Shown: piece by piece, positions 2,514 to 31,060 of the stretch
Numbering within the stretch: position 1 is the first letter of the stretch
Layout: each line of letters begins with the position of its first letter
Assembly (NCBI GenBank): GCA_013115135.1
Contig: JABANP010000582.1
Span: 1-31,060, forward strand
Direction: 5' to 3'
Length of the DNA: 31,060 nt
Origin: Perkinsus olseni
Lineage: Eukaryota > Perkinsozoa > Perkinsida > Perkinsidae
Notes under the pieces: model-generated
The model's input: the letters and a program-made list of their open reading frames with translations, nothing else
Told to the model about the DNA's origin: nothing
The model's database searches: none
Program-made: the position numbers and the translations under genes

Positions 2514-2533
2514 GTCACTGAGTGACGGTGACT
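2514..2533. repeat. Inverted triplet motif, one mismatch
   Basis: Hexamer GTCACT, spacer G, reverse complement AGTGAC, spacer G, then GTGACT (one mismatch). The flanking bases are c and c, so both spacers obey the complement-of-flank rule. It lies in a nest of overlapping small palindromes starting near 2500. Confidence 0.7.
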
Positions 2534-2572
2534 CACTCCATCTTAGGATCAGTCCCCTGACAGCGAAGATGG

Positions 2573-2592
2573 CCGGAGTCTCCGGCCCGGAG
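2573..2592. repeat. Inverted triplet motif, exact
   Basis: Hexamer CCGGAG, spacer T, CTCCGG, spacer C, CCGGAG; flanks g and a. Both spacers are complements of the opposite flank. The sister site in block B (7586-7591) has a single CCGGAG followed by the same ATG, which shows a 14-base gain in block A. Confidence 0.92.
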
Positions 2593-3282
2593 ATGGACTG
2601 ATGGGTGTTGTCGTAATTGGTCCTTGCCGAAGAGGGACTTGAGAGGTGAGTTCACGAATATGATGAAAGGAGACTCTGCCGGATAAACCAAGCAGGGGAG
2701 CGAGGCCATATCAACATCATACTCTAAAGTGGCAGGGTTAGGATGACTGGAGGTTATGTCATCCATGAGAGCTACAGCTGGGAGGAAGGTCACGGTTCTT
2801 AGAACGACTGGGATGCGATGTTAGAGATGCCGAGCTCGTAGAAGGGGATGACCGCAACCGATTGAAGTACCAGTGCATGCAGGCTGCTTAAGATCACGAG
2901 TCAGGATAGGCGTTCTCGCCAGCTGGTCTTGGGCGATGAGGGTAACAGACTAGTAGTTCCGCTGGGCAAAGCATGACTGCCCAGGGGTTATGCCATCGTG
3001 GGCTTGTTGGGACTGTCTAGGCGATTTACCATTGCCGACTCGTACGCCGCTGCATCCGGAATCGTATGAACAAAAGCATAGAAAGCATAGAACAAAAAGC
3101 AGCCGGAGGTGTAGAGGTAAAACACCCCGCAGCGTTGTTGCAGCTAGACCGAATGGAAGATTTTCGTGAGGAATAGTTCCATGCTCAGAGCTCGGGCTCG
3201 ACTTCGATGCAGATGATTAGACCCCAGAGTTCAAGTCTAAGTTCGAGGATAGTCCTCGAGAGAAAGGAACTGCTACCTTTAC

Positions 3283-3306
3283 TGCACAGTAACTGTGTAC
3301 AGTTTG
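3283..3306. repeat. Probable decayed inverted triplet
   Basis: CACAGT, A, ACTGTG, then TACAGTT. This resembles the triplet with one base lost and substitutions. Block C (10632-10645) shows a single ACAGTG at the matching place, so block A again carries the expanded form. Confidence 0.4.
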
Positions 3307-3491
3307 GCTATTTGAGACGGGGCTCGTAGTAAGGTAAAGTCGGACTCGAGGAGAGCTGATCGATAGTGAGATCCTGCAGCGCAATCTAGAACGCATACTC
3401 ATGCACGGCGTGCTGTGCACGCGCGTGCAAGGCGTATAATGGGGTCTGACGGTTATCTGGGATTAATCATACGCAGCAGCAGTCAAGGTAA

Positions 3492-3511
3492 ATGCAGGCT
3501 GCATCATGCAG
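3492..3511. repeat. Inverted triplet motif, exact
   Basis: Hexamer ATGCAG, spacer G, CTGCAT, spacer C, ATGCAG; flanks a and c. The first spacer obeys the rule; the second differs by a transition. Block C has a single TTGCAG at 10808-10813 in the matching position. Confidence 0.9.
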
Positions 3512-3795
3512 CGGTGATGGTCTCACAGCTATGTTGTCAACGTAGTGCAGATGTGCCACGTCGTCTGTCTCTTGAGACCCTGAGTATCGATCGATTATCA
3601 TGGCTACTACGGCACAGCCGTTTCACCTTGCCGAGTCTGAAACTCCTAGTCCGAGCACTGGAAATTTGATGAGAATATCTGCTATTGCGACTATGGGTGC
3701 TTGTTAGTGAGTAGTCATCTGTCTTTGCAGTAATTCCCCAAGACCTCCCTCCCGATCTGCTCTGCTCCTCGCTCCTTTTGCGAGTGACCATTTCC

Positions 3796-3815
3796 TGATT
3801 CTGAATCAGTGGTTC
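3796..3815. repeat. Inverted triplet motif, one mismatch
   Basis: Hexamer TGATTC, spacer T, GAATCA, spacer G, TGGTTC (one mismatch); flanks c and a. Both spacers obey the complement-of-flank rule. Confidence 0.75.
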
Positions 3816-3858
3816 ATCTGCTACTCTCATCATCAGAGTACAGCTTAAGTTATTCCAT

Positions 3859-3878
3859 CGCTGGACCAGCGACGCTGG
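3859..3878. repeat. Inverted triplet motif, exact
   Basis: Hexamer CGCTGG, spacer A, CCAGCG, spacer A, CGCTGG; flanks t and t. Both spacers obey the rule. Confidence 0.92.
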
Positions 3879-4503
3879 TCCAGTTGCTCATCTCCTAGTC
3901 AACTATAATATCGATGGTCGGTATCGCATCAGGTCCCGGAGTGTTACGTTATTGAGTCATCATGGTTGCCAAAAACAGTACGCAGAGTGATCGTGGTAGG
4001 AGGATCTGCCCGCCCTCGTTTGGCCAGTCTTTTTCGCCGTAAAGCATAGCCTATCATAGGGCGACCAGTCGCTATTTATAAACATACTTCCATTCTAGTC
4101 AGCTCCCCTTGTTTCACGTTGTAGCTATCTATGCCCGTGGAATGGACAGCACAGCTGTTCATGCTGTCACAGCAGACAGTGACTGGCGGACGCCGAAAAC
4201 CTCAGCTCAGCTGATGTGTGTCTGCGTTCGACGATCGATGAATACTCCGACTCGTAAGTACGAGAGCTACTCAAGCACATGAAACCCTTCGAGGCCGATG
4301 CATGTACAGGCGTTCTGTCTCGCGCAGAGAGATAAAAAGCTGGTCCAAGGCCATGCTAGGGGGATGAACGTTTATCGATGTCGTATCGACGGCTCGAACC
4401 TTCTGGATGCCGGATGAGCATCGCTTGTAGAAGACTATCGCATATTCTCTTCGGCATCTCTATAGACCCCAGGTGAGGAATCAGATAGAGAGAAATCATT
4501 CGT

Positions 4504-4731: not shown

Positions 4732-4734
4732 TGA

Positions 4735-5720: not shown

Positions 5721-6320
5721 GAAAAATCAATGAATGACCCCTCAAATCAGTATCCACATACGGCCTCTGAGCTCCCAGGGTTAAACTACTGGATGATGTC
5801 GATTGGCGCTCCAGCACGACTACCGTCGCCTAGCTTGATACATTCTGATCCGAGGTGGAAAGACGGGAGGTACCAGACTGAATATTCGGCCTTCGTTCTT
5901 TGGGGATCAAAGCTGCTGGTATACCCTCGAAAAGACGAGTTCCATTCTGCGTGGGATCGATATCTCTCGCTGGGTAAATACTGAATTCATTCTAACTATT
6001 ACTGAGCACAAGTCGGAGAGTCCTCGGTGAAGCAGAAGATATGATGCGTAGCGTGCTGAAGTTGCCAGCTAGATAGAAGTTGCCAGCTTAACAGCAATGC
6101 CAGGACGGCTAAAACTAAACGGCGCTCTCCCAATGCTACGAATGCATTTGGCGATAACGCTTACAATAAGAGGTACAATGATGGTTAAATCCCCGGACAT
6201 ACCAAATCCGCGAGAATACGAGTAAAAAAGTTCTGCGGACAACTGCAAAACAAGAGGACGTTAGTTCCCGAACGAATGGTCTGACGAGTGAGCTGCAGTC
6301 GGCAATTATGCTCATAACGA

Positions 6321-6530
6321 CTAATAAGGGCAGACGCAATCGCAGCTATCTGAGGCGTAATAGTAAAGACATTTACACTGAGGCCCACAGACGCGTTTGC
6401 CACCGTTGCATGCAGAGTCAGGGCATGCGTCAATGTTGCCCAGAGCACGCAGATGGGCACCTAACTCCTCAGCGCCAGACAAGACAAACAACATGAGGCT
6501 GACGACCAGGAGAGAGAGGGCGGCAGCCAT
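6321..6530 (-). CDS. Secreted cysteine-rich peptide B1 (CPY-tail family)
   Basis: The product is 69 residues from the ATG at 6528-6530. The signal peptide is MAAALSLLVV... ending SGAEE. The mature part has C-x4-C-x6-C-GPQ-C-K-C-x8-C-D-C-V-C-PY-stop, eight cysteines. It is the sister of A1 (672-872). The signal, the CGPQCKC core and the CDCVCPY tail are nearly unchanged, while the segment between HLRAL and the third cysteine differs clearly. That contrast suggests constraint on scaffold and tail with freer change in the first loops. Function unknown; probably secreted. Confidence 0.85.
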   Translation of the reverse strand: MAAALSLLVVSLMLFVLSGAEELGAHLRALGNIDACPDSACNGGKRVCGPQCKCLYYYASDSCDCVCPY

Positions 6531-6778
6531 GTTAGTAAACCTGGTATTGATAAATAGAGCTGACAACTGTATGGAAGCTCAGCCCCGGATTCGAGAACTG
6601 CGTCATTACTGAAGCCGCCTTGGCGTGTGAATTCGCCATGAGATTTTTCCCAAACTTCCCTTGAATCTCATAAACTTCCCTCAGCAGGCAAGAAGTTCGG
6701 TGGCAACCATGTGCGCAGCATCAAATTGATACTATTAATTAGTGATCGCTATTAGTCCGACCCAACACGGCTCACACG

Positions 6779-6964
6779 TTACTGATCGAAGAATTTGCCG
6801 CTCGCAAACAACGTGTCCGGCAAGCGGATGCACGAAGGTCGTGCCATACGCAGGACGCATTGATGAAAACAAAACTTATCATCACATCTATCGCCGGGGT
6901 GAACGCAGCCGAGATTGCACGACAACCAAAGGATGCCGATCACCATGACAATGGTTGGAGTCAT
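6779..6964 (-). pseudogene. Truncated peptide gene B2 (lost CPY tail)
   Basis: The ATG at 6962-6964 starts a signal and first half very like A2 (HPGDRC, DKFC, FHQC). After the third conserved cysteine the frame runs into unrelated sequence (VLRMARPSC...) and stops at 6779. Comparison with block A shows why: A 1554-1880 is missing here, joining sequence that lies downstream of the A2 gene directly to its coding middle, with two extra bases at the join. The last four to five cysteines and the CPY end are gone, so the product probably cannot fold as the others do. Confidence 0.8.
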
Positions 6965-7374
6965 ATTGGGTAAAAGAACCCCTGCGAGCAAGTTGCCTCT
7001 TCCGTGCTACTCGGAGCGTGAAACCAACAGGAGACGATTGGCGCTTCCAACAGCCGATGAGCTTGCAAGTTCGCGCTAGTGCAAGATAGTGACAACATAG
7101 TGGCGGCTGTACGCCATGTAACAGCGGCCACCTGGTTTAGTACTACTATACTATCATCGCTGAAATTGCCTTTACTGCTACTGTTACATAGCGCATAGTC
7201 GTAACGACGTAGTCACTATAGTGCAGGTTTCTCGCTCGCTCCGAAGCGTTATCGCCGTTAACTTATCGGATAGAATAGAGCTGGTCCTCAAAACTGGAGA
7301 CATCAGCAGGATCGGTGGGATCGAATGTCACAGGGACTCGTCGTGAAGGACGGACTGAACCGCTTTCTGCAGAC

Positions 7375-7394
7375 TCCCGAATCGGGAGTCCCGA
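7375..7394. repeat. Inverted triplet motif, exact
   Basis: Hexamer TCCCGA, spacer A, TCGGGA, spacer G, TCCCGA; flanks c and t. Both spacers obey the rule. The same hexamer (opposite strand) forms the motif inside the RT at 30726-30745. Confidence 0.92.
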
Positions 7395-7444
7395 TAGAAG
7401 GCTTGAAGAGAATGCCATGATTGTGCAGGCCAGATTGTCACTCC

Positions 7445-7485
7445 ATCTTAGGATAATTCCGCTCTCAGCAAAATGATCCTAAGAT
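7445..7485. repeat. Inverted repeat, 10-bp arms
   Basis: ATCTTAGGAT and ATCCTAAGAT enclose a 21-base loop. Block A holds only the left arm sequence (2540-2548), so the right arm is specific to block B. Confidence 0.6.
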
Positions 7486-7739
7486 AGAGTGAGCGCTAAA
7501 ATAGGTTGCTCTCGCAGGAAGGGGTTGTACAGTAGGCAGAACGTGAATCGCATCCGTCGCAGTACAAGGTAGCCGAACGTAGTGACCGGAGATGAAATGA
7601 TTGTTGTAGTCGGAGTTGGTCCTTGTCGAGGAGAGACTTGAAAGATGAATTCACGAGCATGATGGGAAATTACTTTGTCGAATCAACCAGGCAGGAAGCG
7701 AGATCATATCAACATCATACTCAAGAGTGGCAGGGGTAG

Positions 7740-7782
7740 GATGGCTGAAGCCTTCAGCCATCGCGGGCACGTGACGTGCCCG
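7740..7782. repeat. Two adjoining palindromes with one-base centres
   Basis: The first has 11-bp arms (7740-7750 and 7752-7762, centre c). The second has 9-bp arms CGGGCACGT / ACGTGCCCG (7764-7782, centre g). Only one base separates them. No third repeat is present, so they are not triplets. They sit at the right edge of block B. Confidence 0.7.
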
Positions 7783-9369: not shown

Positions 9370-9449
9370 GAATAAGCTCCGATTCAGTGACAAGAAGGCA
9401 TCAGTTCTCGCTTAAGACTATTGTGAATGATATGGAAGAACTCCGAGAG

Positions 9450-9629
9450 CTAATAAGGACATTCACAGCGGCATGTCCGGGTATCCACAACAGTAACAAC
9501 ACACTTACACTGAGGCTCACATCGATGATTACAGAACTTATCATCACATCTATCGCCGGGGCGAACGCAGCTGAAACCAGAAAATGGCAACCAAAGGACG
9601 CCGATAAGCGTGAGGATGGTCGGGGCCAT
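9450..9629 (-). CDS. Secreted cysteine-rich peptide C1 (CPY-tail family), 59 residues
   Basis: This gene is easy to miss because it is under 60 codons. The ATG at 9627-9629 starts MAPTILTLIGVLWLPFSG, a signal peptide. There follow VRPGDRC, DDKFC, NHRC, EPQCKC, a nine-residue loop, and CRCECPY-stop (TAG at 9450-9452). The mature part has nine cysteines, the extra one just after the signal, as in A2. An in-frame stop lies upstream with no other ATG, so the start is clear. It is intact, unlike B2, and has moved to the EPQCKC core also seen in subgroup E-G, H and I. Function unknown. Confidence 0.82.
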   Translation of the reverse strand: MAPTILTLIGVLWLPFSGFSCVRPGDRCDDKFCNHRCEPQCKCVVTVVDTRTCRCECPY

Positions 9630-9829
9630 ATTGAGACAAAGGCAAAGTCGCTGCGAGAAAGCTTGATTCTAGTACTCCAGTTGACTTTCCCGTGCTAGTC
9701 GGAGCGTAGAGGCCAACGGAAGGCGATTGGAGTTTTGAACAGCCGATGAGCTTCCAAGTCCACGATAGTGCGCTGTAGTGACAATATAGTGACGACTATA
9801 CGCCGTGTAACAGACCGGCTTCCATTGCT

Positions 9830-11581
9830 AGCAGACTATCATCGCTGCAATTGTTACTGAGTCTAACTGATTCCTCTATTTTGTCTTCCTCTGCTCCAAC
9901 TATTGAAAGATCTGATTGGTCTGATGGCCATGGATCTCATGGCATTCTCCTCGGTCTTCTCTCGAGAGTCTGCAACGAGCGGTCCAGTCCGACGTTGACG
10001 ACGAGTGCCTATGAAATTCTACCCTACCTCTCCTGCTCATGTCTTAAGTTTTGACAACTAACTCTATCCTACCCGATTACGCTTCAGAAGGAGAGAAAAA
10101 CCAGAACTATAGTGAAACCACAGGGACGACTATGCGCTTCGTGACAGCCGCCACCAACTTGAGTACTATTCAGTAACAGTTAGACTCCGGTGGACGAAGG
10201 ACAGGTGTCTTGGGGTTAGGCCATTGTGGGCTTGTTGGGGAATGTCTTCAGACATCCAGCAAGATTAGCAACGGGTCCAGAAGCAGCACAAGTGCATCGA
10301 GGAGACCGCGGCAGCTAGCAACAGAATGAAGGCTGCAGCAGCTGGCGACTGGAGGATTATCGTTTGAATTCCCTCAAGACTGGTTTTACCACACATTGAG
10401 CCTTGTCTCAAATAGCCACACTGTACTGGGTTATGGTGCAGTAGTGGCAGTAGCTCCTTGTTATCAAAGACTACCCTCGGACTAGGACTTGCACCCTGGT
10501 GCCTTATCGTCTTCATGGAGGTCGAGCCCCAACCCTGATCGTGCAACGAACTCTCCCTCATCAACTTGTTCTGTCTGGTGTCGAGCTGCTATAACACCCC
10601 GAGGCCTGCTATGTCCATACATTCAGCTGCTCTCACTACAGTGTGGCTATTTGAGACGGAGCTCAAAGAAAGGCAATACGGACTCGTTATGAACTGATCG
10701 ATAATGAGATTCTGCAGCATAATCTAGAACGCATAATCACGCAAGCGAGTGCACAGCGCAGGATGAGGCCGAGCTGGCATCTGGAACTAATAATACAACA
10801 GAGACAATTGCAGCGATGATGACCTAACAGCTGGATAGTTCTGGAGTCGATGGCAACGGTTACATGGCGTACACTGTAGTCGTCAACGTGCTGTCATTAT
10901 AGTGCACGAGTGACGGAGACCTCAGCTTAGCTTATGAGTGTATGCGTTCCGCGATCGACGAATGCTCCGACTCGTAAGTACGAGAGGGGTACAAGAATAT
11001 ACACCTCACGAAGCTGATGCATGGGTAGACGTTTCGTGTCGTGGAGAGAGATGAGAAGCGGGTCTGTTGCTTCTCCGTTGTTGTTCTGACCAACTTGTTC
11101 ATAGGCAACGCAAGACGGGAAGGAGTCTTAGCTGTATTTTCTTCTCTTTCGAGCTCACTCTCTTGAGAAGCCTCAGCTATGCGCGTGTATAAAGGCGATC
11201 GGCGCATAATGAGTGGCGGGGTCAAAGGGCACGCCACGGGAATGAGAGCTAATAAATTCCATATCGATAGCATGGACCTTCTGAGTGCCGATTGCAGAAG
11301 ACCATCGCAGATTCTCGTGGGCAGCTCAATAGTTCCCAGATGAGGAATGGGAGTGAGAAAGCGAGACAGAGAGCTGCCGGTGATGCACAGACGACTTGCC
11401 AACTCATCCCATGCCGAGGATTCATGAGGAATTCATTGTACATTCGTCAACAGGTAGACAAGTCTCCCTGTAATTGGGGTTTTCAATCACTAATAACTCA
11501 ACACACTCCGCATCAATGGATTAAAAGCACCGCAAGGTAGATGAGTTACGAATCATCAATAGTTTTCGAGGCACGCATATT
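9830..11581. other. Non-coding spacer of block C
   Basis: Short open frames occur but none is shared in frame with block A, apart from a short minus-strand segment PHLG-IE-P-RICD-LLQ near 11280-11345. That segment is also readable in block A (near 4420-4480) and may be a small exon or chance. I would not call a gene on it. Confidence 0.4.
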
Positions 11582-13233
11582 TCAAAAAGGTTGCGATATG
11601 TTTGGCGTGAGCACAGGACTAAAACCGGCAGGAATTGAGTACATAGGAGCGATATGAAAAGAAAGGTTTGTAGACACCTCCGAGGCCATAGGGGTCATTC
11701 TTGGGAAAGCGGTTCCTGTTGGAGCCGCTGAGATAGGAGAGCTCCCCGGCTCATTTGCCCGGGGCGGCTGGGGATGGACTTTCTGAGGATCCTCAGTGGA
11801 TCTCACTCTTCTCCCTCTACCACGGCCTTTAAACGGAGAGAATTTTGATGGGAATCTGCTGTCGAAAGGGGAATAGGCGATGAACTCGTCCGGGTCATCC
11901 TCCTGCCACCATCCGAGTTGGCATTGTTCTCCGAATCTGTCATCAAATGGTGAGCACACAACTAGCCCTTTGGCACGTTTATGCGTGCTCGTCTTGGGAT
12001 GGTGGCGACCGATTTTGGAAGTGAGTACCACAAATTTCGCATCGAATGGGCTCACCGACTCCCATCCGCAGGAACTTTGCACGGTTGGCCTCTTGGTCAG
12101 GTGTTGATGATAGGAGCGAATCTGCCAATTCTTCGGCTTCTCTCGAGACCCACCAGATGCCTTCAGATATTTCTTAGCGAGCCTCATCCTTTTTGTGTTG
12201 CGTGAGCGGCGTCGCCCATTCGACCTCCTCCTTGAAGGCCACTTAGTAATCCTCTCAAAATCTTCTGAAAACGGGCTATATGCTTGGAAGCCTTCGATGA
12301 AGCGAGGCTCATGAGCCATATAGAAAGGGAAGCGCTCGTCGAAGGGCGAAAAGGTCTCGAAGATACTCTTAGGGACCCTCTCCTTGTGGTGTGGTTTGTG
12401 TCTTATACATGTACAGTCCTTCACACCGCGACGACGCCTGGCCTTGCGCTTCCTGGGTACACCACCGAGCTGTTGACGGACATCCGGAGCCACAACACTG
12501 CCCGAGACGGCCCTCGTAGAGAGTCTCTGCGTTCCTCTGTTCAGACTGCCATCATTCCACAACAGGAACCCGCCGGAAGCCCCTCTAGCGGGCGCAGTAG
12601 GAGCCGAGTATGGGCCAAAGGCGATCGGTGCTCGGATCACTCCAGGCTGAACAACAGTGCTTGTTGCGTCCGAAACAGACTGGAGACGACTCTGCTGGCC
12701 AATGCCACCCAGGGATCCTTGCGGGGGAAGCGCGTAACCATTCCAGTCTATGACGGCCAGCGGCTGATGCTGCTGTTGCTGCAGATGATGAGCCGGAGCC
12801 GACGCTTGTAGTGGGAACCTGACGACAGAACATGAGCAAACGAGCAGCGCATGGAAGGTATCCGGTATTCTAGATCAGTACAGGCAGTATGATGTGACGG
12901 GAGAAAGACAGTTGATGGGCGTGGCAGGAACTATTACCATTGAGAATGATGCTGTTGGTTGAGAGCATGCGTGTACTGCTGGGAAGTTGTTGGACCTCCA
13001 GGCTGGTTGAGAGCGTTTTGGGGATGCTGCATTATGGCAACCTCAACATCTTTGTGAGACGGCTGTGGTTCGGCCACAAGCCCGACAGGCGGAGCGAAGC
13101 GAGTCATGCAGAATGCCTTAACCCATTCGCAGGTCACTTGGATTTGAGGCCGTATTCGAGTTACTTGTAGAGTGCCCCAGTTCCTGGAATCGGAGCTATA
13201 ACGGCTAAGGCGACATTGCCCAAGTCCGATCAT
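11582..13233 (-). CDS. Basic low-complexity protein with six SPF motifs (two-exon model)
   Basis: Exon 1 is 13233-12938 and exon 2 is 12818-11582, giving 510 residues. The 119-base intron starts GTAATA and ends GTCAG, and splicing keeps the frame by completing a TGG codon. Residues 75-140 are rich in Q, H and N. A KR-rich segment follows (about 219-230). Motifs of the form SPFDxRF occur near residues 256, 280, 355, 388, 415 and 426 (SPFDERF, SPFSEDF, SPFDAKF, SPFDDRF, SPFDSRF, SPFKGRG), separated by basic RRRS and KR patches. A GRGRGR stretch and a hydrophobic tail end it. No membrane segment or enzyme domain is visible. It may be a disordered RNA- or DNA-binding scaffold, which is inference. 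The start is uncertain: M43 (MTRFAPPVG) or an upstream exon are alternatives. Confidence 0.6.
12819..12937 (-). other. Predicted GT-AG intron
   Basis: The donor is ATG|GTAATAG and the acceptor TTCTGTCGTCAG|G, with a pyrimidine-biased stretch before the AG. Without splicing, both flanking open frames lack a sensible end or start. With it they join in one frame. Confidence 0.6.
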
Positions 13234-14400: not shown

Positions 14401-14406
14401 ACGCCA

Positions 14407-14426
14407 TCAACAGTGTTGACTCAACA
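14407..14426. repeat. Inverted triplet motif, exact hexamers
   Basis: Hexamer TCAACA, spacer G, TGTTGA, spacer C, TCAACA; flanks a and t. This is the one exact copy where both spacers depart from the rule, each by a transition. It lies about 110 bp upstream of peptide gene D. Confidence 0.88.
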
Positions 14427-14535
14427 TGACGGCGTGTCACGAATCTCCCAGCTTCTGGAATGAAATAATGGTGGCATTAGCTCTGATAATTCTTCAATTC
14501 AGTAGTGGTCCTGTTATTGATCTAGGCCTTTGCTT

Positions 14536-14995: not shown

Positions 14996-14996
14996 T

Positions 14997-15352: not shown

Positions 15353-15359
15353 TTGATAA

Positions 15360-16895: not shown

Positions 16896-17178
16896 TTCAT
16901 GGTGTCTCGCCGGACTTTTTAAGAGTACCGCAAATTCTGGGGTGTTAACATAATCATGGAGATTCGAACCAATCATTCATCCATTTATTATTTTATCACT
17001 CTTTGACCAATTACTCGAGGCAGCGAGTTAGAGGGAGCGAGGCATTGGTTTCCTTCGTTTGGCCCTGCTCGGGTGCTGTTCCGCTCGACGCTCATGTACA
17101 ACTCTGAATACTGTTGCCGCACCTGTTGTAAGTTGTAGATGCCTTTGTAATAGCGAGCGGACGACAGCTTGAACCACC

Positions 17179-17198
17179 CTGACACTGTCAGGCTGACA
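17179..17198. repeat. Inverted triplet motif, exact
   Basis: Hexamer CTGACA, spacer C, TGTCAG, spacer G, CTGACA; flanks c and g. Both spacers obey the rule. Unit G has the unexpanded 8-mer C-CTGACA-G at 23985-23992 in the same context, the cleanest before-and-after pair in the window. Confidence 0.95.
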
Positions 17199-17473
17199 GA
17201 TTGACTATTGTAAGAGTCCACAAGCTCGGAAGAGCATGGCTGCACGTTCGCCTTCAACTTCATGACCTATCTCTCAATCTTCTCAATCTTCAAAGGATTT
17301 CCCACCTTCTCTGACTTGCGCTGAGAGTCTGGCGGTCATTTGAAAGGAGCTCACAGGTTCGAAGTGTGGCGTGGTCTGGCGGACTACGAGTGATGACTGT
17401 GACTTTGGTCCCCGTCTCGGCTTGTGAGCTGACGTGCCATTAGCCGTGAGCATCGCCCTGCTCCCAACCACCG

Positions 17474-18852: not shown

Positions 18853-19615
18853 TTGATGGTGTTTCGCCCTAGCATTCAACTTAACCATCGGCTAAGTCTT
18901 TGGCGTCAGCACAGTTACGGTGATTTCAACCGATTATTCCTTCATTATCCCATCATTGTTTGAACAATCACTCTGGCAGGAGGAGCCAAACATCGGCTCC
19001 CTTCGGTTGGCCCTCCTCGGGTGCTGACCCGTTCGACGCTCATCTACAAAACTAAATACTGCTGCCGATTCTGCTGTACGTTGTAGATGCAATCGTGATA
19101 GCAAGCGCCTGATAGTTGGAACCTTCCCGACTGATTGATTACACAGGAAGTCGGCAAGTTTCGGAAGGGCTCGCAAGGGTATGGCTGTACGCTTGCTGTT
19201 CAATTTCTTGACTCAATGAGATATCTCTCAGTCCTTCACCCGATGAAGTTCACCGTTTCCCAGCGCCTCCGACTTGCACTGAGTCTGGCGATGAACTTAG
19301 TGAATAAGCGGAGAACTAACGCATAATGGAGAAACTAGGAGGAGCGATAAGTGTGGCTTGGATCTCCTCCCGAGGGATCGAAAGCCAGGTTCTAGGGAGC
19401 ACGCTAAACGTGCGTTCACATTCCTGATGCCACATTAACGAACCGTCTATGCTAGTCTACCATGCTGAAGAGTTCTCGAAATGTCACGTTATTGTGTGCA
19501 TGGCCGCTTCGAAAGACCGGCAGAGCATCCAAGAGTCGCACAGCATGCAAGGGACAAGAAGGAGCCTCAAGTGTCGTTGTCACGAAACTCCTCATGTAAC
19601 AATTGCTGCGTGCTC

Positions 19616-19635
19616 TTAATACTATTAAGTTAATA
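19616..19635. repeat. Inverted triplet motif, exact
   Basis: Hexamer TTAATA, spacer C, TATTAA, spacer G, TTAATA; flanks c and g. Both spacers obey the rule. This AT-only hexamer shows that the process is not limited to GC-rich targets. Confidence 0.92.
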
Positions 19636-19850
19636 GTAAACGCATGAGATTTCCTCGCCCGTACGGCTATCACGTGGCTCGATGTAGACAACTGTCATCT
19701 GTATCAAACTTGAATAACTGCTCAGAGCCGCCCGAAGTATGGGTGGAGCAACCATCCTGGGTGACGGTGCCATCGTGACCGACAGGGGGATATTCCATGG
19801 CTCACTCATCCTCAGGGAGGATGGTTCGAGCAGCTTGAGCTGAGAAATCT

Positions 19851-20616: not shown

Positions 20617-20619
20617 CAA

Positions 20620-20670: not shown

Positions 20671-20716
20671 GATCAAATCGGATGATAGCATTCAGCCATA
20701 AGGACGAAAAGTAACT

Positions 20717-21533
20717 TCATACAGAGCGAGGCATTGGGATCATTGTTGAAGTAAAGAAATGATGATGAGTATCAAAAGTGCACAACTGATGGAGTACTCC
20801 CGCCCGTGGGGACGGGCATAGCACCAAGATATTCGTTTCATAAATAGCAGAACGTCCTGAGCGTATACTTCCCCTAGCTCGAGTGAGAGCCTCTCTACAG
20901 GTCCTCAAATAAGTGATGTATTGAACGTCTGGCAGTCGTTGAGGATTAGGATGCCAAGAAGTCCCACAATACTCTGGAAAATTCGCATTAAATGATCGAG
21001 CCAAAGTCTCCTCGCACTCCTTACGGCATCTAGTAGGCTTGCGATAATTATCCCCACATTGCAGCCGGTGGAAGAGCCTATTATACTCATCGTACTGGTC
21101 AGTGATGGTCCAATGCAATATGATAGAACCCAGGGTGACGGATTGACAGAGTGTTATAGAGAGTATGGTGATACGCCTCAGCTAAATTGGACGTTCTCTC
21201 ACGAGAACCGGCGTGGTTCCACTTAGTACAAGGAAAAAGCGGTGGGCGCGAATCAGTACCAATGAACGTTTTCGTGAAATACTTCACGAAGTTATCAGAA
21301 TTAGAGCGTAAAGGTTCAGGCAAGCTTTGAGAGATATGATCTCCCAGCCTGTATACGGAATCGAGGGCAAATCGCATATGGCCGATGGGTACAAGAGGGA
21401 GTGGGTTGGAGGAAATCAATCTAAGTCTAGAAAGACGTAACCTGAGAGAGGTAATAGGGTGTGGGAGAGCAGTGAAATTGTGCATGACCTTCATCTGCTT
21501 GTCCTTCCAGAAGAGGCAGCTCGCGGTGCGCAT
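20717..21533 (-). pseudogene. MULE transposase C-terminal remnant
   Basis: The minus-strand frame from about 21533 to 21099 contains FVKYFTKTFIG, RPPLFPCTKWN, RERTSNLAEAYHHTLYN and IRHPGFYHIALDH. This is the standard order at the end of eukaryotic MULE transposases: F--YF---YIG, R-PLFP---WN, RTNN--E-WH, HP-iW-fi. The protein continues in a shifted frame (ITDQYDEYNRLFHRLQCG, then C-R--CEETLAR) down to 20717, so at least one frameshift is present. The DDE core that should precede it is absent. It lies inside the element bounded at 20341-22062. Confidence 0.75.
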
Positions 21534-21656
21534 TCATCATGAGAATGGCGACAGTCAAAAAGAACACTACGGTACATAAATTAGGGGCGCGCGCTTCGGA
21601 GTAAACGGAAGGTACGCGGGCACCCGAAGCACAAACGAATTTCTTCAGGGTACGAA

Positions 21657-21720
21657 TGGTGGCGTGGTTAAGTCCCGCTGCTGCTGACCGGGCAACCCAG
21701 GTTCGATTCCTGGGGTCGGT
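21657..21720 (+). other. tRNA-like fragment with A- and B-box matches
   Basis: GTGGCGTGGTTAAGTCC resembles a D-arm/A-box. CCAGG-TTCGATT-CCTGG is a perfect T-arm with a B-box, about 40 bases downstream as in a tRNA. The seven bases after the T-arm do not pair with those before the D-arm, and no proper anticodon arm forms. It is probably a tRNA relic or a tRNA-derived SINE piece inside the MULE. Confidence 0.4.
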
Positions 21721-21744
21721 CTCGGAGGAGAACGACAGGGGAGT

Positions 21745-21845
21745 CCGGCGGCGGAGCCGCCGGCGAACTTTTTAATTTGGCATCGCGAAGCGGCTTCGCG
21801 ATGCCAAATTAAATGCGATCGGGCATCCGATCGCGATGCCAAATT
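21745..21845. repeat. Cluster of hairpins near the MULE right end
   Basis: In order: CCGGCGGC/GCCGCCGG around 21745-21763; a perfect palindrome with 21-bp arms and one-base centre (21771-21813, centre g at 21792); then GCGATCGG/CCGATCGC (21815-21834). The string CGCGATGCCAAATT occurs at 21797-21810 and again at 21832-21845. Confidence 0.85.
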
Positions 21846-22072
21846 TTTTCATTCGGTGGACGAAATGAGACATGCATGAAAAAAAACAGGGCGAATGAAT
21901 GGACGAAGTGAGACTGGATGGGCCGAGAATTTATTTTATGGGCGATTTTGATGGGTGAAATGAGATGGATGGAATGGCACCGGATGAAATTATAGTGGAC
22001 GACTTTACACTGGAACAGATGACCACTGGACGAAATTATACTGGATCAGTTGGGTTACCCCGGAGCGTTAGG

Positions 22073-22985: not shown

Positions 22986-23122
22986 AAGTATTCGATGGCA
23001 TAACAACGTGCTGGACGTGCCCGGCCGCAGCAGGAAGACTAGTTCTCAAGCTGTGCATAGCTGCGTCGCAGCCTCCGACTCCGTCAACTGAGTTCCCAAT
23101 CTGGGGTCCGTATCCGTTTCGG

Positions 23123-23142
23123 TGTCGCAGCGACACTGTCGC
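23123..23142. repeat. Inverted triplet motif, exact
   Basis: Hexamer TGTCGC, spacer A, GCGACA, spacer C, TGTCGC; flanks g and t. Both spacers obey the rule. Confidence 0.92.
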
Positions 23143-23499
23143 TTCTCGAGACACAGAGAGTCGTCTGTGTATGCGTGCAAATGGGTAAGAAGCAATAGTT
23201 GGCTGAGAGACAGCGCAACTATCACCAACTATGCGAGGATAGATCTCGTCAGCCGCTCAGCCTAGATAGCGGTGACTAGGAAAGCTAAGCCCATACTGAC
23301 GCACTCAAAATGAGCCGGTCTGATCTGACACAATACGTAACCACAAAGTGTGACACTCCGGTTGACGAGCACGCACGAAAGCCCGAGGTTGCCGTGAAAG
23401 TCTCGCTGAGGAGAGTTTTCGATTTGTTACAAAGATGGCATTAACTTTTCTGAGGCCAGAATTGTATGGTTGTTCAGTCATTGATACTGGCCGTTGCTT

Positions 23500-23706
23500 A
23501 TGGCTCAATTCTGTCACCTGCTGGTCGGCATCGTCCCGTTCACCCTGTTATGTAGCGCCGAGTGGTTCCTTGCCCCCTCTCCTACACTCGGTGGCGCCAA
23601 ACCATTCTGCCAAATGCAGTACTGCATAATAGAGAGTGGAGGTTGCGAACCGCAGTGTAAATGTATTATTGAAGGACGTAAATGCGTATGCTCATGTCCG
23701 TATTAG
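23500..23706 (+). CDS. Secreted cysteine-rich peptide G (CPY-tail family)
   Basis: The product is 68 residues from the ATG at 23500. The signal is MAQFCHLLVGIVPFTLL, then a cleavage-like CSAEW. A PSPTLGG linker is followed by C-x4-C-x6-C-EPQ-C-K-C-x6-C-V-C-S-C-PY-stop, eight conserved cysteines, plus two more within the signal region. It has the shortest loop before the CxCxCPY tail in the family. Its 5' flank (GGCATTAAC, ATTGTATGGTTGTTCA) and 3' flank (TTGATGGTGTTTCGCCGGAC) match E and F. It is probably secreted; function unknown. Confidence 0.85.
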   Translation: MAQFCHLLVGIVPFTLLCSAEWFLAPSPTLGGAKPFCQMQYCIIESGGCEPQCKCIIEGRKCVCSCPY

Positions 23707-24703
23707 TTGATGGTGTTTCGCCGGACTATTCAACCTAACCACCAGCAAAGTCTGAGGGGTTGGCATAGTTGTGGCGATCTCAACAGATCATTTCATTCAT
23801 TCGTTTGTCATCCCATCATTCTTTGAACAATCGCTCTGGCAGGGAGAGGCATCGGCTCCCTTCGGACGGCCCTCCTCGGGTGCTGGCCCGCTCAACTCTC
23901 ATCTGCAACTGCAAGTACTGTTGCCAGATCTGTTGCATGTTGTAGATGCCATTGTGGTTGCGAGCGGCTCATGGCTTCAATCATCCTGACAGATTGACTA
24001 TTGTGAGAGTCAACAAGTTCTGAAGCTTCGCTCAGAATGGCATGGATGCACTCTCACCTTTTACTTTTTGACTCAATGAGATATCTCTCAATCCCTCGAG
24101 CATCTTCCAGCTTCTCCGATTTGTGCTAAGAGTCAGGCAATAATCTCAGTGTACGCGAGTTTTATCGGGAATCTCGAATTAGCGCTCACTGGAGAGACTA
24201 AGAGTGGTTACCTCGGCTTTGATGTCCTCTCGAGGGAGCGACAACCATGTTCTAGGAAGCACGTTTACATCATCGATGTCACATTAACGGGCCCGCCATG
24301 GTAATTTAGTATGCTGACAATGTCTCAAGATTTAACGTTCTTGTGTGCACGGTCGCTTTGAAAGACTGAGAAAGCATCCCAGAGTCTTGAGATATCCAGC
24401 AATGGCGGACCTTACAGTTCTCCGGGCTGAAAGAGCCTTCTACCACATGCAAGTCAGGAAACGGAGCCCTACGCATAAGATTTTCTCGCCCGTACGGCTA
24501 CCACGTTTCATTCCGAGGACTTTCATCTATACTGGAATGACAGCTGAACTCAGCCCGAAGTCTGTTTGATGCAACAATCCTGGGTGAAGATGAAATTGGA
24601 GTCGTGAGCCGTGTAAATCGCCCTGCTCCGAAGTGTCGTGGTGTGCGATGTACTCGTTTGCGGAATATGATGGAATGAAGCGCAGTACTCGAGCAGTTTC
24701 GGG

Positions 24704-26070: not shown

Positions 26071-27737
26071 GCTCAAAAGAACCTGCCCATGATGCTTTCA
26101 GTACGCCTGCCCTGCCCTTGACCCACTGTGCACACGAGGCGTTCACGAGTGCTGGCACGAGTGAGCGCATGGACTACAACAGATTTTAGCTAAACCAGCG
26201 CTTAACAGGTAGCGAAACCGATTCCGCGGAATGCTCAAGTGAAGGAAGCTACACAGCATGTACGGTGTGCCACCGATACCAGCACCACTTGGGCTCCCAC
26301 TGAGCGGCCGTCCTTCCGGGACAGTTACTTTTACGGGGATAACCCTCCGGTTATGACAGGATTCTATCGACAATGAGGTACTCCGGGGGACAGCCAACCC
26401 AGCCGACTACACGCTAGCACATAGCTTGGCGGAGCGAACCAGTGCGACCATTGTAGGAATCGCACCCCGCGCTAGCCATTTCAAGCTGTGTGCGTCCGTC
26501 CACCTCCCTTCGAAGGTTGAGTCCCTTGGCGTGAAGTTCGAAGACGCCATCCACTGGCGCTTCGCTACTAGTTGACTTGTCAAGTGATGGTCACAACACT
26601 ATCACGCAGCGGCGGTCACGTCAAGGTGGATTCCAAACTCAAGTTCCCTTCGAGTTGTCGTCCGTTTCGGTGAGGGGCGGCCGCGGTTGGGCATCAACAA
26701 TGCATTCCGGTAGCCTTGTATGTTGAAAGGCCATTGACCGGTGAGGGCCGTTCTCAAGTCGGGTTTCGATACACTTCGCGACTGATTCCAGCGCTTGAGG
26801 AGAACTAGAGGCCATCTCTGAACTCAAACGCCGACCGAGGTTGCCCGAGATAAAGAGCTCTCTGTGATTCCTACCTCACGCTCCGTGTTCCTCGAGAAAT
26901 TCACGACGGAAGCTTTCTGCTGCATGCGTGTTAGGTGATGGCGGACCGCCCCATTCAACTCGAAGATAATGATAAGATGGCAGAGATCACTCGGAGGAAA
27001 AACGGCGCTTACAAAATGCGTCGAGTTTTCCGAGTGTCCCACGATTTTTCATACATGGGTACAAGAGATACCTACGTGGAACATGAGGGGTTCGAAGCTA
27101 GCTCTTTGAGCGATCTTCTGAGCGAATGGGTAGGTTTACTGTGATCGTCTGAAGTCTGGATTTCCTTCCGACAATAGGAAAAGTTTGCTCACTGGCAGCA
27201 CACCTGTTGCTATGCTTTCATCTGCCACCGTTCAATCACCATGTGAAGTCGCTGAATCATTTCACTGCACCTATGAACAGCTCAAATCGATTCAGAAACA
27301 GAGAGAGATCTGAGTGTTGTGATACTAGATACTAAATAAGTCTACTCTCTCGTGACTGGCGAATGAATATGAATAGGTCTTCTCATTCGCGATCAGAATA
27401 ATTCTTATGTTTCTAAGGATGATGATGCCGAAATCGCGTAGACAACAAGGACCACTACGGCCTCTCGCGATGGCATCTACAATAGACTTGGCCTGGCCAA
27501 GTTGGTCATCGTTTTACAATCGAGAGACGCGATCTTCATAGAAGCATGGAGAGGAGATAAGCGTGCATGCGACTATGGCCGCCGAACTGATAAGCGTCGG
27601 CCACCGGGGGGCAAGAGCAGGCCACCGATTCGAAAAAAGCTACACAAGTTGATGAATAACTGTTCAAGGTACGCTCGGCTGCAGAAAAGCCGCAGCTTGC
27701 GACCATGCCGAACGACCAACCGACGGAACTGAAGCGG
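26071..27737. other. Spacer between H and I, no gene recognised
   Basis: Nothing codes convincingly. The sequence at 26668-26700 repeats part of 20199-20232. An inverted repeat GCGAATGA/TCATTCGC with a 16-base loop lies near 27359-27390. A triplet motif is listed separately. Confidence 0.4.
27488..27507. repeat. Inverted triplet motif, one mismatch
   Basis: Hexamer TTGGCC, spacer T, GGCCAA, spacer G, TTGGTC (one mismatch); flanks c and a. Both spacers obey the rule. Confidence 0.78.
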
Positions 27738-27944
27738 TCAATAAGGGCACCCGCATACACACTCGTTCCAATGAGCATCCTTGAAGACACATTCACACTG
27801 AGGCTCGCAAGATCCACAGTGACGCATCGGACAGGTGGTTGAGCTCGGGTCGCCTAGAGCGCGCAGATGTCCAAGGAGAGGCTCAGCGCCACACGACAAG
27901 GACAAGCAGAAGATAACGATCACTGAAAGATAGTTCCTAGCCAT
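27738..27944 (-). CDS. Secreted cysteine-rich peptide I (CPY-tail family)
   Basis: The product is 68 residues from the ATG at 27942-27944. The signal is MARNYLSVIVIFCLSLS, then CGAE, followed by PLLGHLRAL as in A1 and B1. The core is C-x4-C-x2-C-EPQ-C-E-C-x9-C-V-C-G-C-PY-stop, with the shortest gap between cysteines two and three. The minus-strand leader has AATATTTAAGGCAG then TTCTTTT, which may include a TATA-like element or a splice acceptor. It is probably secreted; function unknown. Confidence 0.85.
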   Translation of the reverse strand: MARNYLSVIVIFCLSLSCGAEPLLGHLRALGDPSSTTCPMRHCGSCEPQCECVFKDAHWNECVCGCPY

Positions 27945-27959
27945 ATCCAAAAGAATCTG

Positions 27960-29015
27960 CCTTAAATATTGCGGTAGCCATCACCTGCGCCACCGAGCGC
28001 TCGAGCTGATGGTTTTTGTCGACCAACCGACTTATCGACACTTATCGAACGAGTGAGCTTCAACTCAAAGCAACTAGACTGGTTAGAGGCTCAACACAAA
28101 GAACTCTCCGGTTTCCCGAGCGTTTCTGCCATCGATCAACCCACGTGCGCCGAGCGAAAACGCTATGAACGGTTAAAACCTCAGGTTCCAAGATAGGGCA
28201 AGGTCTGGTACCTCACTGGAGCCGGTGAGGTCGACAGGATTTCAAGACGACAGCGAGGGAATTGGGTGCTCACGACGACAGCGAAGGCAAACCATGCCGA
28301 AGGCGATGGCACACACGCCAATCGGGGTTGGATAGTAAAGCGCAACTCGACATTAGTAACTGATGCGAGGCAAAGAAAGTCTAATCTCCCGAGTTTAGCC
28401 TATTTCCCGCTACAGCATAATCGATCACGGCACATTGTGCGGGCCAACTCCACGCACGAACTTGTGCGGCACTTTTCCGCCGCGCTACTCACAACGACTG
28501 ACCGACAACATCACCCTTGTCGGGTGAGCCAGCCCCAGAAAGACGATGATAGACGGTGGGCATAGACCATGTGAAGGCCGCAAAGTGTCAATCACACCAT
28601 CTACTGCCGTTGAAGGGGGCATTTATAGATAGAGCACCAGGAAGCAATCATGAGTCGACGGGCGCGATACCGTGCGGTGGTGTGTGTGTGAGTTTATAGT
28701 CCAACGCCGGTTCCGGCTTAGTTAGACTCTTGCCGATGTGCACAGTTGGAGACACTCTGTAGCGTTGATATGCAGTGCAAACAGACAGATTATCAATAAG
28801 CTTTCCTCAGGGGTACTTTCAACTAGAAAGGCTTCCTTTCCTCCTGGCAGGATCCGCTTACTCATCCGAGGGCTGTGCCTACGACCGTCGCACAAGCCTC
28901 GCCCGGTGTGCCACGACCAGTATCATCTCCAGGACTCGAAAAGTCTGCCAATCAAGTTGTTTTCCCCGTTCGGTTAACTCTCATTAGGCGATGGTCTCCA
29001 CCAAACTTTCTATTT
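27960..29015. other. No gene recognised
   Basis: Short open frames only. Direct repeats CTTATCGA (28031-28048) and ACGACAGCGA (28247-28286), plus an imperfect palindrome ACCTCACTGG/CCGGTGAGGT with a two-base centre (28210-28231), are all I see. The 3' end of the retrotransposon should lie near 29000, but I find no clear poly(A) or target duplication. Confidence 0.35.
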
Positions 29016-31060
29016 TCAATTTGTTTTCGGAAGCTCTTTGAAATAGATCTTTTCGCAGTAGCCAGCCATAGCTGCACATCGACTCACACAGATTGTTATT
29101 TGCCCAAGAGTTCCGCTTCCGTCTATGAAACTAGGCCGCAAGCGAGACCGATCTGGTCTTTGACAGTTGAGCATTAGATGAGCGTTCCCATCCTTGACCC
29201 CACAATGACGACAAATAGTATCATGAACCGTTGCATTGTAGCCAGGTCTATATTTATAGGCCTTCAAAAGAATCGAGTGGCCCGACAATAGCTGCAAGAA
29301 CGCCCCATTGTTTCTCGACCGCACCACTTTTTGGACACTATCTCTCTGCCGAGAGCTCTCAAGTGCTCTTCGTAAGGGTTCCGAGAGTGTCGACACCAAC
29401 CGTACTACCGTATAATCCCTAAAAAGATCAAGACGGTGCTTTGTTTCCGACAAAGACAAGCTAGCCCGCCCATTTCTTTCCTCAATGCCCTCGTGACCCG
29501 TATTGGTGCACAGGTCCTCGGGGAAGCCCCATTCTTCCAAAAGGGTTCTAAATTTATCTATTTTTGCTCTCGATTTCGTACAATCGATGACTGATCTTCT
29601 GTGAAAATGGGTGAGAACCGCTTTTTGAGTTACTAGAAATGACAGAGGCATCACACCAGAAGCTACATATAGCAATGCTCGAGGGGTGCTCTTCCGAGCT
29701 CTCAACGCCCGCCTCAAAAAGTAAGAACCTACCAAGTCGATTTCTTCCCTTACTGTTTTGTTGGCTATGAGAGGACCCCATACCTCATGAGCATAAAGGA
29801 CGACAGGTAGAAGAACTTTGTTATATATTTCAATGAAAAGTCCAACCGACAACCCTTGCCTCTTGCCTAGCATTGCACCGCACTTCCGTAAAGCCATATT
29901 ATCAATTTGCTTTGCAAGCGTTAACCTGCCACTCAAATGTTCGTGAAAGTTTAAACCAGAAGTGAAGGTGAATCCTAGCTGGCGGAGCACGTTGTTGTAG
30001 CCAGAAAGCCCGCTCAAGGCCCTCTTTTGATTTGTCATGAGCGTCATCTTCGAAGGCTCTAGGACGAGATTTATCACTGCCGATTCACTTCGGACAAATT
30101 CTATGATGCGTCTCAAAGCAGATCTCATATCTTCGTCTGTAACTCCATCCCTCCACGATATCAATAGGTACGAGTCATCCGCATAGCATTTCCATTCACA
30201 GCACTCCACCTCTTCCAAACCGGAAACAAAGGCTTCCACCTTCATGCCAACGGACTCTGTATCGATGATGAACAAGAAAGGGGAAAGCAAAGCCCCTTGT
30301 GGGGTTCCTTTCCCCGCGAATGCCTGCCTATGCACCCTGACATTCCCATATTCTAATTCTGATGTACGCCCAGCAAGCCACGACTCCACCCATATACGAG
30401 TGCGACTGTCTACCCCGAAGGACTCCAGACTACTGATAATCGAACTGTGCGAAACTTCTCCGAAAGCATTACTGTAGTCAAGTGATATTAGACACCACTT
30501 CTTATGGTCACAAGCGAATTTCACGGAAGAGCTGATCACATCTATGGTGCTTTTAGATGCAAGATATGCACACTGGCGTCCAGCATTCCTGATTGCTTCA
30601 AGAGGCTGTTCCAGGAATTGTCGCAGATACGCCTCAGCTATCTTTGAGAGCGTTGAGCAGAGTGCGATGGGCCGCAGGGATTTGACACTTTTCCTATCTT
30701 TCTTCGGTTTATCGAGCATTATTGTTCGGGACTCCCGAATCGGGAGTGCTTCCATGAGCGAGGGAGATAACCATTCTCATAGCTGAAGCCAATGAGTTTC
30801 CCCAACTCGGTCTTAACCCAGGGAGGGCTCTCGTGCCAGTGCCTTAAACGGATCCCGTCGATGCCAGGCGCTGAGTCGAAGCTCTTCTGCCTCCTCTTTA
30901 TTAGCGAAGAGATTTCCTCCTGTGAAACCTCAAAACTTGTGCTAGGCTCAGCAACTGCCCCCGTCTCGACATCTCCCGCTCTCTCTAAAATGTCCACTCC
31001 AGATGCTCTTGGACCGATGTAATGATCGGCAAGCCGATTTGCGGACTGTTCTATGGTATT
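29016..31060 (-). mobile_element. Non-LTR retrotransposon, 3' part, cut by the window edge
   Basis: The reverse-transcriptase region and a C-terminal zinc-knuckle region are present. The endonuclease that usually precedes the RT would lie beyond 31060. The 3' limit is uncertain. Confidence 0.75.
29016..31060 (-). pseudogene. Non-LTR reverse transcriptase with one 14-base frameshift
   Basis: The first frame runs from the window edge to 30719 and has SAPGIDGIR, then YLPRSWKHS. The second frame (30755-29016, 579 residues if read from its first ATG) has TIMLDKPKKDR, RPIAL, LDYSNAF (motif A, about residues 92-98), GKGTPQGALLSP (148-159), YADD (191-194), then thumb-like sequence. A CCHC knuckle C-x2-C-x7-H-x4-C lies at 515-531. 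Catalytic aspartates are all visible. The order matches the LINE group that has a C-terminal CCHC. The frames are split at 30726-30745 by a triplet motif; taking away 14 bases there puts both in one frame. The element looks young, with no other stop seen. Confidence 0.82.
30726..30745. repeat. Inverted triplet motif inside the RT gene, exact
   Basis: Hexamer TCGGGA, spacer C, TCCCGA, spacer A, TCGGGA; flanks t and g. Both spacers obey the rule. It falls between the conserved SWK and IML-KP segments of the RT and shifts the frame. Confidence 0.95.

What the first reader, a model, noticed from the sequence alone, without database searches (positions are those of the whole stretch)
2514..30745. 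A dispersed 20-base inverted triplet motif with fixed 6-1-6-1-6 geometry
Twelve exact copies (2573, 3492, 3859, 7375, 14407, 14976, 14997, 17179, 17474, 19616, 23123, 30726) and three with one mismatch (2514, 3796, 27488) have the form S, one base, reverse complement of S, one base, S. The hexamer S differs almost every time, so it is not a repeat family in sequence, only in architecture. Expected exact copies by chance are 31,060 divided by 4^12, about 0.002. I found them by eye, so more may exist. I know of no described element with this signature.
Basis: seen in the sequence. Interest (0 to 1): 0.96.

Follow-up and report, generated by a model that had tools for sequence, protein, structure and literature searches.

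The report
Uniform scars of departed jumping genes
The scattered triplets are the cores of 22-base units of one fixed format that expand an 8-base site by 14 bases; each was likely left when a hAT-type jumping gene cut itself out, so this genome would hold thousands of readable records of departed transposons.

Summary
The full unit is 22 bp, not 20: t1-u-t8'-u'-t1'-u-t8, i.e. 7 bases of an 8-base site, its complete inverted copy, then 7 bases. The two extra bases were predicted from a hairpin model before testing; 37 of 41 exact 20-mers in window + 200 kb carry both. Paralogues show empty sites exactly 14 bp shorter, and 10 of 10 scored 14-bp insertions are these units. An 8-bp site, palindromes centred on the complement of the base that would border a transposon, and an nTnnnnAn-like site preference are the signature of hAT excision. 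hAT transposases and hAT-like elements with 8-bp duplications are present; the organism is Perkinsus olseni or very close. Scars avoid long ORFs; one interrupts a LINE reverse transcriptase. The surprise is uniformity: published hAT footprints vary, here one product dominates. I infer that both flanking hairpins are opened far from the tip and joined through the 8 nt of complementarity that the target duplication supplies. Extrapolated count: about 8,000 intact scars. No site was seen filled in one copy and scarred in another, so the resident element, and its family, are inferred.

The parts
2295..2316 (.). 22-bp scar, 1 mismatch, site GTTATCGG
   Evidence: 14 bp absent from the inverted paralogue 9937-10147; same event as 7248
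2513..2534 (.). 22-bp scar, 1 mismatch, site CGTCACTC
2572..2593 (.). 22-bp scar, exact, site GCCGGAGA
3401..3422 (.). 22-bp scar candidate, 2 mismatches
   Evidence: weak singly
3491..3512 (.). 22-bp scar, 1 mismatch (20-bp core exact), site AATGCAGC
3795..3816 (.). 22-bp scar, 1 mismatch, site CTGATTCA
3858..3879 (.). 22-bp scar, exact, site TCGCTGGT
6718..6739 (.). 22-bp scar candidate, 2 mismatches
   Evidence: weak singly
7248..7269 (.). 22-bp scar, 1 mismatch, site GTTATCGG, duplicate of 2295
7374..7395 (.). 22-bp scar, exact, site CTCCCGAT
   Evidence: its two paralogue alignments are unclear
11080..11101 (.). 22-bp scar, 1 mismatch, site GTTGTTCA
14406..14427 (.). 22-bp scar, 2 mismatches (20-bp core exact)
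   Evidence: present in the 97% copy on C534
14975..14996 (.). 22-bp scar, exact, site GTTCCCAT
   Evidence: shared with C534
14996..15017 (.). 22-bp scar, exact, site TGCTACTC; shares one base with its neighbour
   Evidence: shared with C534
15359..15380 (.). 22-bp scar candidate, 2 mismatches
   Evidence: not recognised at 2 mismatches in the C534 copy
17178..17199 (.). 22-bp scar, exact, site CCTGACAG
   Evidence: 14 bp absent from the paralogue near 23841-24138; shared with C534
17473..17494 (.). 22-bp scar, exact, site GTGTACGA
   Evidence: shared with C534
19234..19255 (.). 22-bp scar, 1 mismatch, site CTTCACCG
   Evidence: paralogue alignment shows a 13-base gap, unclear
19615..19636 (.). 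22-bp scar, exact, site CTTAATAG
23122..23143 (.). 22-bp scar, exact, site GTGTCGCT
27487..27508 (.). 22-bp scar, 1 mismatch, site CTTGGCCA
30725..30746 (.). 22-bp scar, exact, site TTCGGGAG, inside a LINE reverse transcriptase reading frame
   Evidence: RVT_1 downstream; the frame open upstream differs from the frame downstream

Best explanation
Each triplet is the core of a 22-bp unit in which an 8-bp site has become 7 bases of itself, its full inverted copy and 7 more bases (+14 bp), and it is most likely the scar left when a hAT transposon with an 8-bp target duplication excised. Proposed steps, all inferred from known hAT chemistry: (1) the element inserts and duplicates an 8-bp site t1..t8; (2) on excision the transposase nicks one base into each flank and seals each flank into a hairpin, which puts the complement of the bordering base at the tip (t8' on the left, t1' on the right); (3) the host opens both hairpins at least 7-8 bases from the tip, so that the left strand ends t1..t7-t8'..t1' and the right strand is its counterpart; (4) the two tails share exactly the 8 complementary bases t8'..t1', because the target site was duplicated; they anneal there, extra tail is trimmed and gaps are filled. 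Every such repair gives the same format whatever the site sequence. Shown directly: the format, the +14 bp against empty paralogues, the site preference, the avoidance of long ORFs, and the presence of hAT genes and of elements with 8-bp duplications. Not shown: an element resident at a site that is now scarred, the hairpins themselves, and which family did it; the hAT family ending in TAGAGATGGGCA is my candidate.
For: Prediction of the two outer bases written down and then met in 37 of 41. Only site length 8 with offset 1 stands out: 65 distinct units in 291,895 bases against 0.001 expected. 14 of 31 scar-spanning paralogue alignments show a clean 14-base gap, at 11 distinct sites; 10 of 10 14-bp insertions between paralogues are scars. 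T at t2 or A at t7 in 55 of 130 positions, p 1.6e-5, as in the Hermes target nTnnnnAn (PMC10368747 and PMC2803484, passages). Palindromes centred on the complement of the bordering base are the published Ac/Ds mark (PMC5873905, passages). 21 matches to the hAT dimerisation domain, one ORF with DUF4371 plus that domain, elements with perfect 8-bp duplications. Flanks of TAGAGATGGGCA ends show the same T2/A7 excess, 18 of 42. 1 of 64 scars lies in ORFs of 250 codons or more, which cover 46,257 of 231,060 bases. Long one-base-centred palindromes at 20552-20670 are an insertion that fits two opened hairpins.
Against: No site was seen filled in one copy and scarred in another. Few hAT ends were found (35 exact TAGAGATGGGCA, of which about 5 are chance by the reversed-pattern control) for an estimated 8,000 scars. 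The commoner CAGGGTG elements with 8-bp duplications lack the site preference (9 of 38). Published hAT footprints are mixtures, whereas intermediate forms are few here. Scars cluster (30 of 59 nearest neighbours within 100 bp, 11 expected), which simple excision does not explain. The insertion at 20584-20645 implies a 4-bp, not an 8-bp, site. Of the 31 paralogue alignments 7 were unclear.
Confidence: 0.86

Rival explanations
1. A hAT-type transposase, perhaps domesticated, makes hairpin-ended breaks at preferred 8-bp sites and repair writes the 14-bp insertion in one step, with no element ever resident there.
For: Estimated thousands of scars (27 exact per 200 kb) against 35 exact TAGAGATGGGCA ends; clustering of scars with 8 of 23 pairs under 100 bp lying 59-65 apart.
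Against: The geometry is what a pair of flanks separated by an element with a duplicated site would give; a domesticated hAT enzyme I know of, Kat1, still needs transposon ends (PMC4763223, passages). In cut-and-paste movement scars are expected to outnumber elements.
Confidence: 0.07
2. The units come from an 8-bp-duplicating transposon of another superfamily (Merlin, P or similar) that also seals its flanks into hairpins.
For: Other superfamilies also duplicate 8 bp: Merlin in another alveolate-group genome gives 8-bp duplications, and Merlin remnants are reported in Perkinsus marinus (PMC8101967, passages).
Against: No match to the Merlin domain PF12762 in this genome; flank hairpins with a one-base tip and nTnnnnAn sites are hAT traits. 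P elements were not searched for.
Confidence: 0.03
3. Replication slippage or template switching at short quasi-palindromes makes the triplets without any transposase.
For: Each unit is two overlapping odd palindromes copied from local sequence.
Against: Such errors would give a spread of arm and offset lengths; only arm 7 with one-base centre and site length 8 is found. They do not explain the T2/A7 preference.
Confidence: 0.03
4. The triplet is a functional signal (protein site or structure) kept by selection on its architecture.
For: The format is exact, and the four exact scars of a 4.2-kb stretch are unchanged in a copy 97% identical.
Against: The sequence is free; many copies have decayed (27 with one and 22 with two mismatches beside 37 exact); paralogues do without them. 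Four scars are too few to show conservation.
Confidence: 0.01

Closest known systems
Ac/Ds excision footprints (plants, yeast, Candida albicans)
   Same: Palindromic additions centred on the complement of the base bordering the transposon; repair by microhomology is common in Arabidopsis and yeast (PMC5873905, passages).
   Different: Those footprints are heterogeneous: 28 kinds in 128 Candida events, palindrome arms mostly short in Candida, up to 20 nt in yeast (same passages). Here one 22-bp product dominates.
Hermes/hobo-type hAT transposition
   Same: 8-bp target duplication with nTnnnnAn preference and hairpins on the donor flanks (PMC10368747, PMC2803484, passages).
   Different: The Perkinsus family is not identified; a Hermes footprint of this exact form was not seen in the passages read.
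TcBuster (hAT) footprints in human cells
   Same: Short additions complementary to flanking bases, ascribed to flank hairpins and end joining (PMC3499496, passages).
   Different: Few-base insertions and deletions of up to 50 bp, not a fixed 14-bp gain.
mPing excision repair
   Same: The target duplication supplies the microhomology used in repair (PMC4561436, passages).
   Different: mPing repair is mostly precise with 3-bp sites; here the annealed bases would be the inverted copy, leaving +14 bp.
DNA-transposon excisions between two rice genomes
   Same: Genome-wide reading of excision scars from sequence (PMC4423477, passages).
   Different: 94 putative excisions with varied deletions and fillers; no single format.

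Membership tests
hAT excision footprint | Site unit of 8 bp | tested here: met
   Only site length 8 stands out among lengths 4-13; empty sites are 14 bp shorter
hAT excision footprint | Palindromes centred on the complement of the base bordering the transposon | tested here: met
   Both outer bases pair as predicted in 37 of 41 exact 20-mers
hAT excision footprint | hAT-like target preference nTnnnnAn | tested here: met
   55 of 130 positions, p 1.6e-5; a weak preference, as for Hermes
hAT excision footprint | hAT transposases and elements with 8-bp duplications in the genome | tested here: met
hAT excision footprint | The same site seen filled by a hAT element in another copy | tested here: inconclusive
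   None seen in the paralogue alignments; the sample is about 0.3 Mb of 61.5 Mb
hAT excision footprint | Flanking hairpins made by the transposase | not testable with these tools
   Needs biochemistry
Ac/Ds-type footprint spectrum | Mixture of short palindromic additions and deletions | tested here: not met
   65 full units; intermediates few: 1 to 9 per class at middle lengths 3-6, none at 7 or 9-14. Deletions and precise excisions were not testable
Merlin excision product | Merlin/IS1595 transposase domain in the genome | tested here: not met
   0 matches to PF12762

The most novel reading that the evidence does not exclude
The genome carries a transposase activity, possibly a tamed hAT enzyme, that stamps a fixed 14-bp inverted-repeat insertion onto nTnnnnAn-like sites in one step without any resident transposon: a sequence-independent, architecture-specific mutator that has acted thousands of times and in local clusters.
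Probability: 0.07. Interest if true: 0.92.

Novelty: new variant of a known kind. Interest (0 to 1): 0.64.

Why it matters
Excision scars are normally too varied to recognise without the element or an experiment. Here one fixed, sequence-independent format lets them be counted from raw sequence, so past cut-and-paste traffic could be read directly and, with more data, ordered by decay. It also points to a repair route in this alveolate lineage in which transposon hairpins are opened far from the tip and joined by the complementarity built into the target duplication. The same scan (t1-u-t8'-u'-t1'-u-t8) can be run on any genome, which would show whether this outcome is peculiar to Perkinsus. 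Each scar adds 14 bp and so shifts the reading frame if it falls in a gene.

Tried and rejected
Repeat family in sequence: rejected, the hexamers differ. Chance: rejected by geometry grids and shuffles. A second class with 10-bp sites (6 units): rejected, these are the same units whose palindromes extend by one base, 6 of 65 against about 4 expected. Partial footprints: at middle lengths 3, 5 and 6 a few exceed chance (up to 9 against 1.1; 1-2 against 0.07; 1-2 against 0.017) but are far below 65; the excess at middle 0 (232 against 71) was not followed and may be simple repeats. The CAGGGTG elements as source: of 20 copies fetched out of 40 scored, 17 have perfect 8-bp duplications and 3 (L059, L061, L063) lacked a recognisable end; with two more in L012 the 19 duplications lack the site preference (9 of 38). 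TAGAGATGGGCA flanks: my first choice of 11 was made after seeing them; 21 distinct flanks without that choice (repeated flanks counted once; L034 and L036 are the same places as two fetched ends) give 18 of 42, p 0.012. Merlin: no domain. Ku, to judge the repair pathway: one weak 43-position match, inconclusive. The GCGATCGC search and an Rfam scan (no match) led nowhere. Literature: the listings (hAT, footprints, hairpins; Perkinsus) showed no title or abstract describing this uniform footprint; 'GTNNNNAC' found no paper. Most subscription papers are not in the library, and the yeast Ac/Ds study PMC321453 is not held, so I do not claim that it is absent from print.
Full report
Observation. 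A grid of arm and spacer lengths shows a single peak at arm 6, spacers 1 and 1: 12 in the window and 29 in 200 kb from 20 other stretches of the same genome; the next best arm-6 cell holds 1 (window, spacers 0-5) or 2 (200 kb, spacers 0-8). The raised arm-5 cells at spacers 1,3 and 3,1 contain the same objects read one base shorter.

What the unit is. The geometry suggested flanking hairpins of the kind hAT transposases make. For an 8-bp target duplication t1..t8, a nick one base into the flank puts the complement of the bordering base at each hairpin tip. Two opened hairpins that share the inverted site then give t1-u-t8'-u'-t1'-u-t8, where u is t2..t7. I wrote the prediction down (I had by then glanced at flanks printed) and then counted: 37 of 41 exact 20-mers carry both, 3 carry one, 1 neither. 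In window + 200 kb the 22-mers number 37 exact, 27 with one mismatch and 22 with two; five block shuffles gave 0, 0 and at most 2. Scanning site lengths 4-13 with offsets 0-3, length 8 with offset 1 stands out: 65 distinct units in 291,895 bases against 0.001 expected. Beyond the 22 bp the palindromes extend only a little more often than chance (left 24, right 20, both 6 of 65, against about 16, 16 and 4).

It is an insertion. Of 31 paralogue alignments spanning a scar (up to two mismatches), 14 show a clean 14-base gap opposite the scar (11 distinct sites), 10 share the scar, and 7 are unclear or show another gap, among them 7374 and 19234 of this window. In 82 one-way paralogue alignments of at least 80% identity, insertions of 14 bp are found at 10 sites, second only to 1 bp (23); 3 bp has 7, 4 bp 8, 7 bp 4 and 8 bp 2. 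All 10 are scars, 6 exact and 4 with one mismatch. In the window, 2295 and 7248 are one event copied by a local duplication and absent from the inverted third copy at 9937-10147; 17178 is absent from the paralogue near 23841-24138. A copy of 14288-18527 on another contig, 97% identical, shares the four exact scars and the two-mismatch one at 14406 unchanged; the two-mismatch candidate at 15359 is not recognised there. Those scars predate that split.

Where they lie. Of 64 scars with at most one mismatch in window + 200 kb, 1 falls in stop-to-stop ORFs of 250 codons or more, which cover 46,257 of 231,060 bases, and 5 fall in ORFs of 150 or more (76,243 bases; binomial p 3e-6, ignoring clustering). 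The single one, at 30725-30746, is in a LINE reverse transcriptase frame (RVT_1 downstream). The frame that is open upstream, which looks like the same protein by eye only, differs from the one downstream. In the 20 sampled 10-kb stretches counts run from 0 to 13. The 60.8 kb around hAT genes hold 32 exact scars, but those stretches were chosen for hAT genes. Extrapolating 27 exact per 200 kb to 61.5 Mb gives about 8,000; the stretches were not drawn at random and scars cluster, so this is rough.

Link to hAT. The site has T at t2 or A at t7 in 55 of 130 positions, in the sense of the published Hermes pattern nTnnnnAn (PMC10368747, PMC2803484; passages seen). The genome has 21 matches to the hAT dimerisation domain, an ORF with DUF4371 plus that domain (L031), and elements with perfect 8-bp duplications. 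Flanks of the TAGAGATGGGCA ends show the same T2/A7 excess (18 of 42, p 0.012). The CAGGGTG family, with at least 40 copies, does not (9 of 38), although one of its insertions has an empty counterpart with a single 8-bp copy (coordinates). One hAT-locus protein is 100% identical over 83% of its length to a Perkinsus olseni record, the only hit, which names the organism or a very close one.

Why one product. Published hAT footprints are mixtures of short palindromic additions and deletions (PMC5873905, PMC3499496, PMC1978519; passages seen). Here intermediate forms are few. The simplest reading is that hairpins are opened beyond the duplicated site and the tails anneal through the eight bases that they must share; other joins that give the same letters cannot be told apart.

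A check came from the window itself. At 20552-20670 lie two perfect palindromes with one-base centres, 32-1-32 and 25-1-25, three bases apart. In six other copies of the repeat that holds them (C499, C57, C36, C228, C322, C202), the base before the first centre is followed directly by the sequence after the second, with a two-base overlap, so 20584-20645 is a 62-bp insertion. In five copies (two on C68; C202, C656, C233) the inverted matches, which include each centre base, overlap by exactly four bases, so each centre base is the complement of the base that bordered the break (coordinates; letters of these copies could not be fetched). That fits two flanking hairpins on a 4-bp site (ACAT), opened 32 and 25 bases from the tip and joined without annealing. 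It supports opened hairpins with one-base tips in this lineage, but the 4-bp site points to another element or break than the 22-bp scars, and is unexplained. In the 292-kb sample, perfect palindromes with arms of 12 or more number 8 at a one-base centre and 1, 0, 2, 0 and 1 at centres of 0, 2, 3, 4 and 5 bases.

Limits. No site was seen filled in one copy and scarred in another, so residence of an element is inferred from chemistry and site preference; the family responsible is a candidate only. The clustering of scars (30 of 59 nearest neighbours within 100 bp; mean 11 and at most 25 in 1000 random placements) and the 8 of 23 pairs under 100 bp that lie 59-65 apart (which includes the hAT loci) are unexplained: local re-insertion, open chromatin or a one-step process are all possible.

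Verdict. A real, sharply defined feature, explained with good support as a known kind of event in an unusually uniform and abundant form that I did not find described in the searches made.

Noticed in passing
window 20552-20616 and 20620-20670: Two adjacent perfect palindromes with one-base centres (32-1-32, 25-1-25); 20584-20645 is a 62-bp insertion absent from six other copies of the repeat and fits two opened hairpins on a 4-bp site.
   Followed up: partly
window 20342-22062: Repeat with 45-bp terminal inverted repeats (93%) flanked by a 9-10 bp direct repeat beginning GAGCGTTAG, with many relatives in the genome; by recall this suggests a Mutator-like element.
   Followed up: partly
window 21771-21813: Perfect palindrome 21-1-21, apparently present in other copies of the same repeat (coordinates).
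   Followed up: no
window 14475-14758, 16634-16911, 18594-18868, 23439-23722: Four diverged direct copies of one stretch, apparently a tandem gene family.
   Followed up: no
window 1-4000, 5769-7750, 9449-11808: Direct and inverted duplications of one stretch, used here as empty-site controls.
   Followed up: partly
window 11585-12874, minus strand: 430-codon open frame with repeated SPF-D-RF-like motifs and no Pfam match.
   Followed up: no
window 29019-31060, minus strand: LINE reverse transcriptase (RVT_1) whose reading frame changes at the scar 30725-30746.
   Followed up: partly
L012 6193-6484: Short hAT-like element with CAGGGTG ends, at least 40 copies in the genome, 8-bp duplications, site preference unlike that of the scars.
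   Followed up: partly
window and L005-L044: Scars cluster within 100 bp of each other more than expected, with a hint of 59-65 bp spacing.
   Followed up: partly
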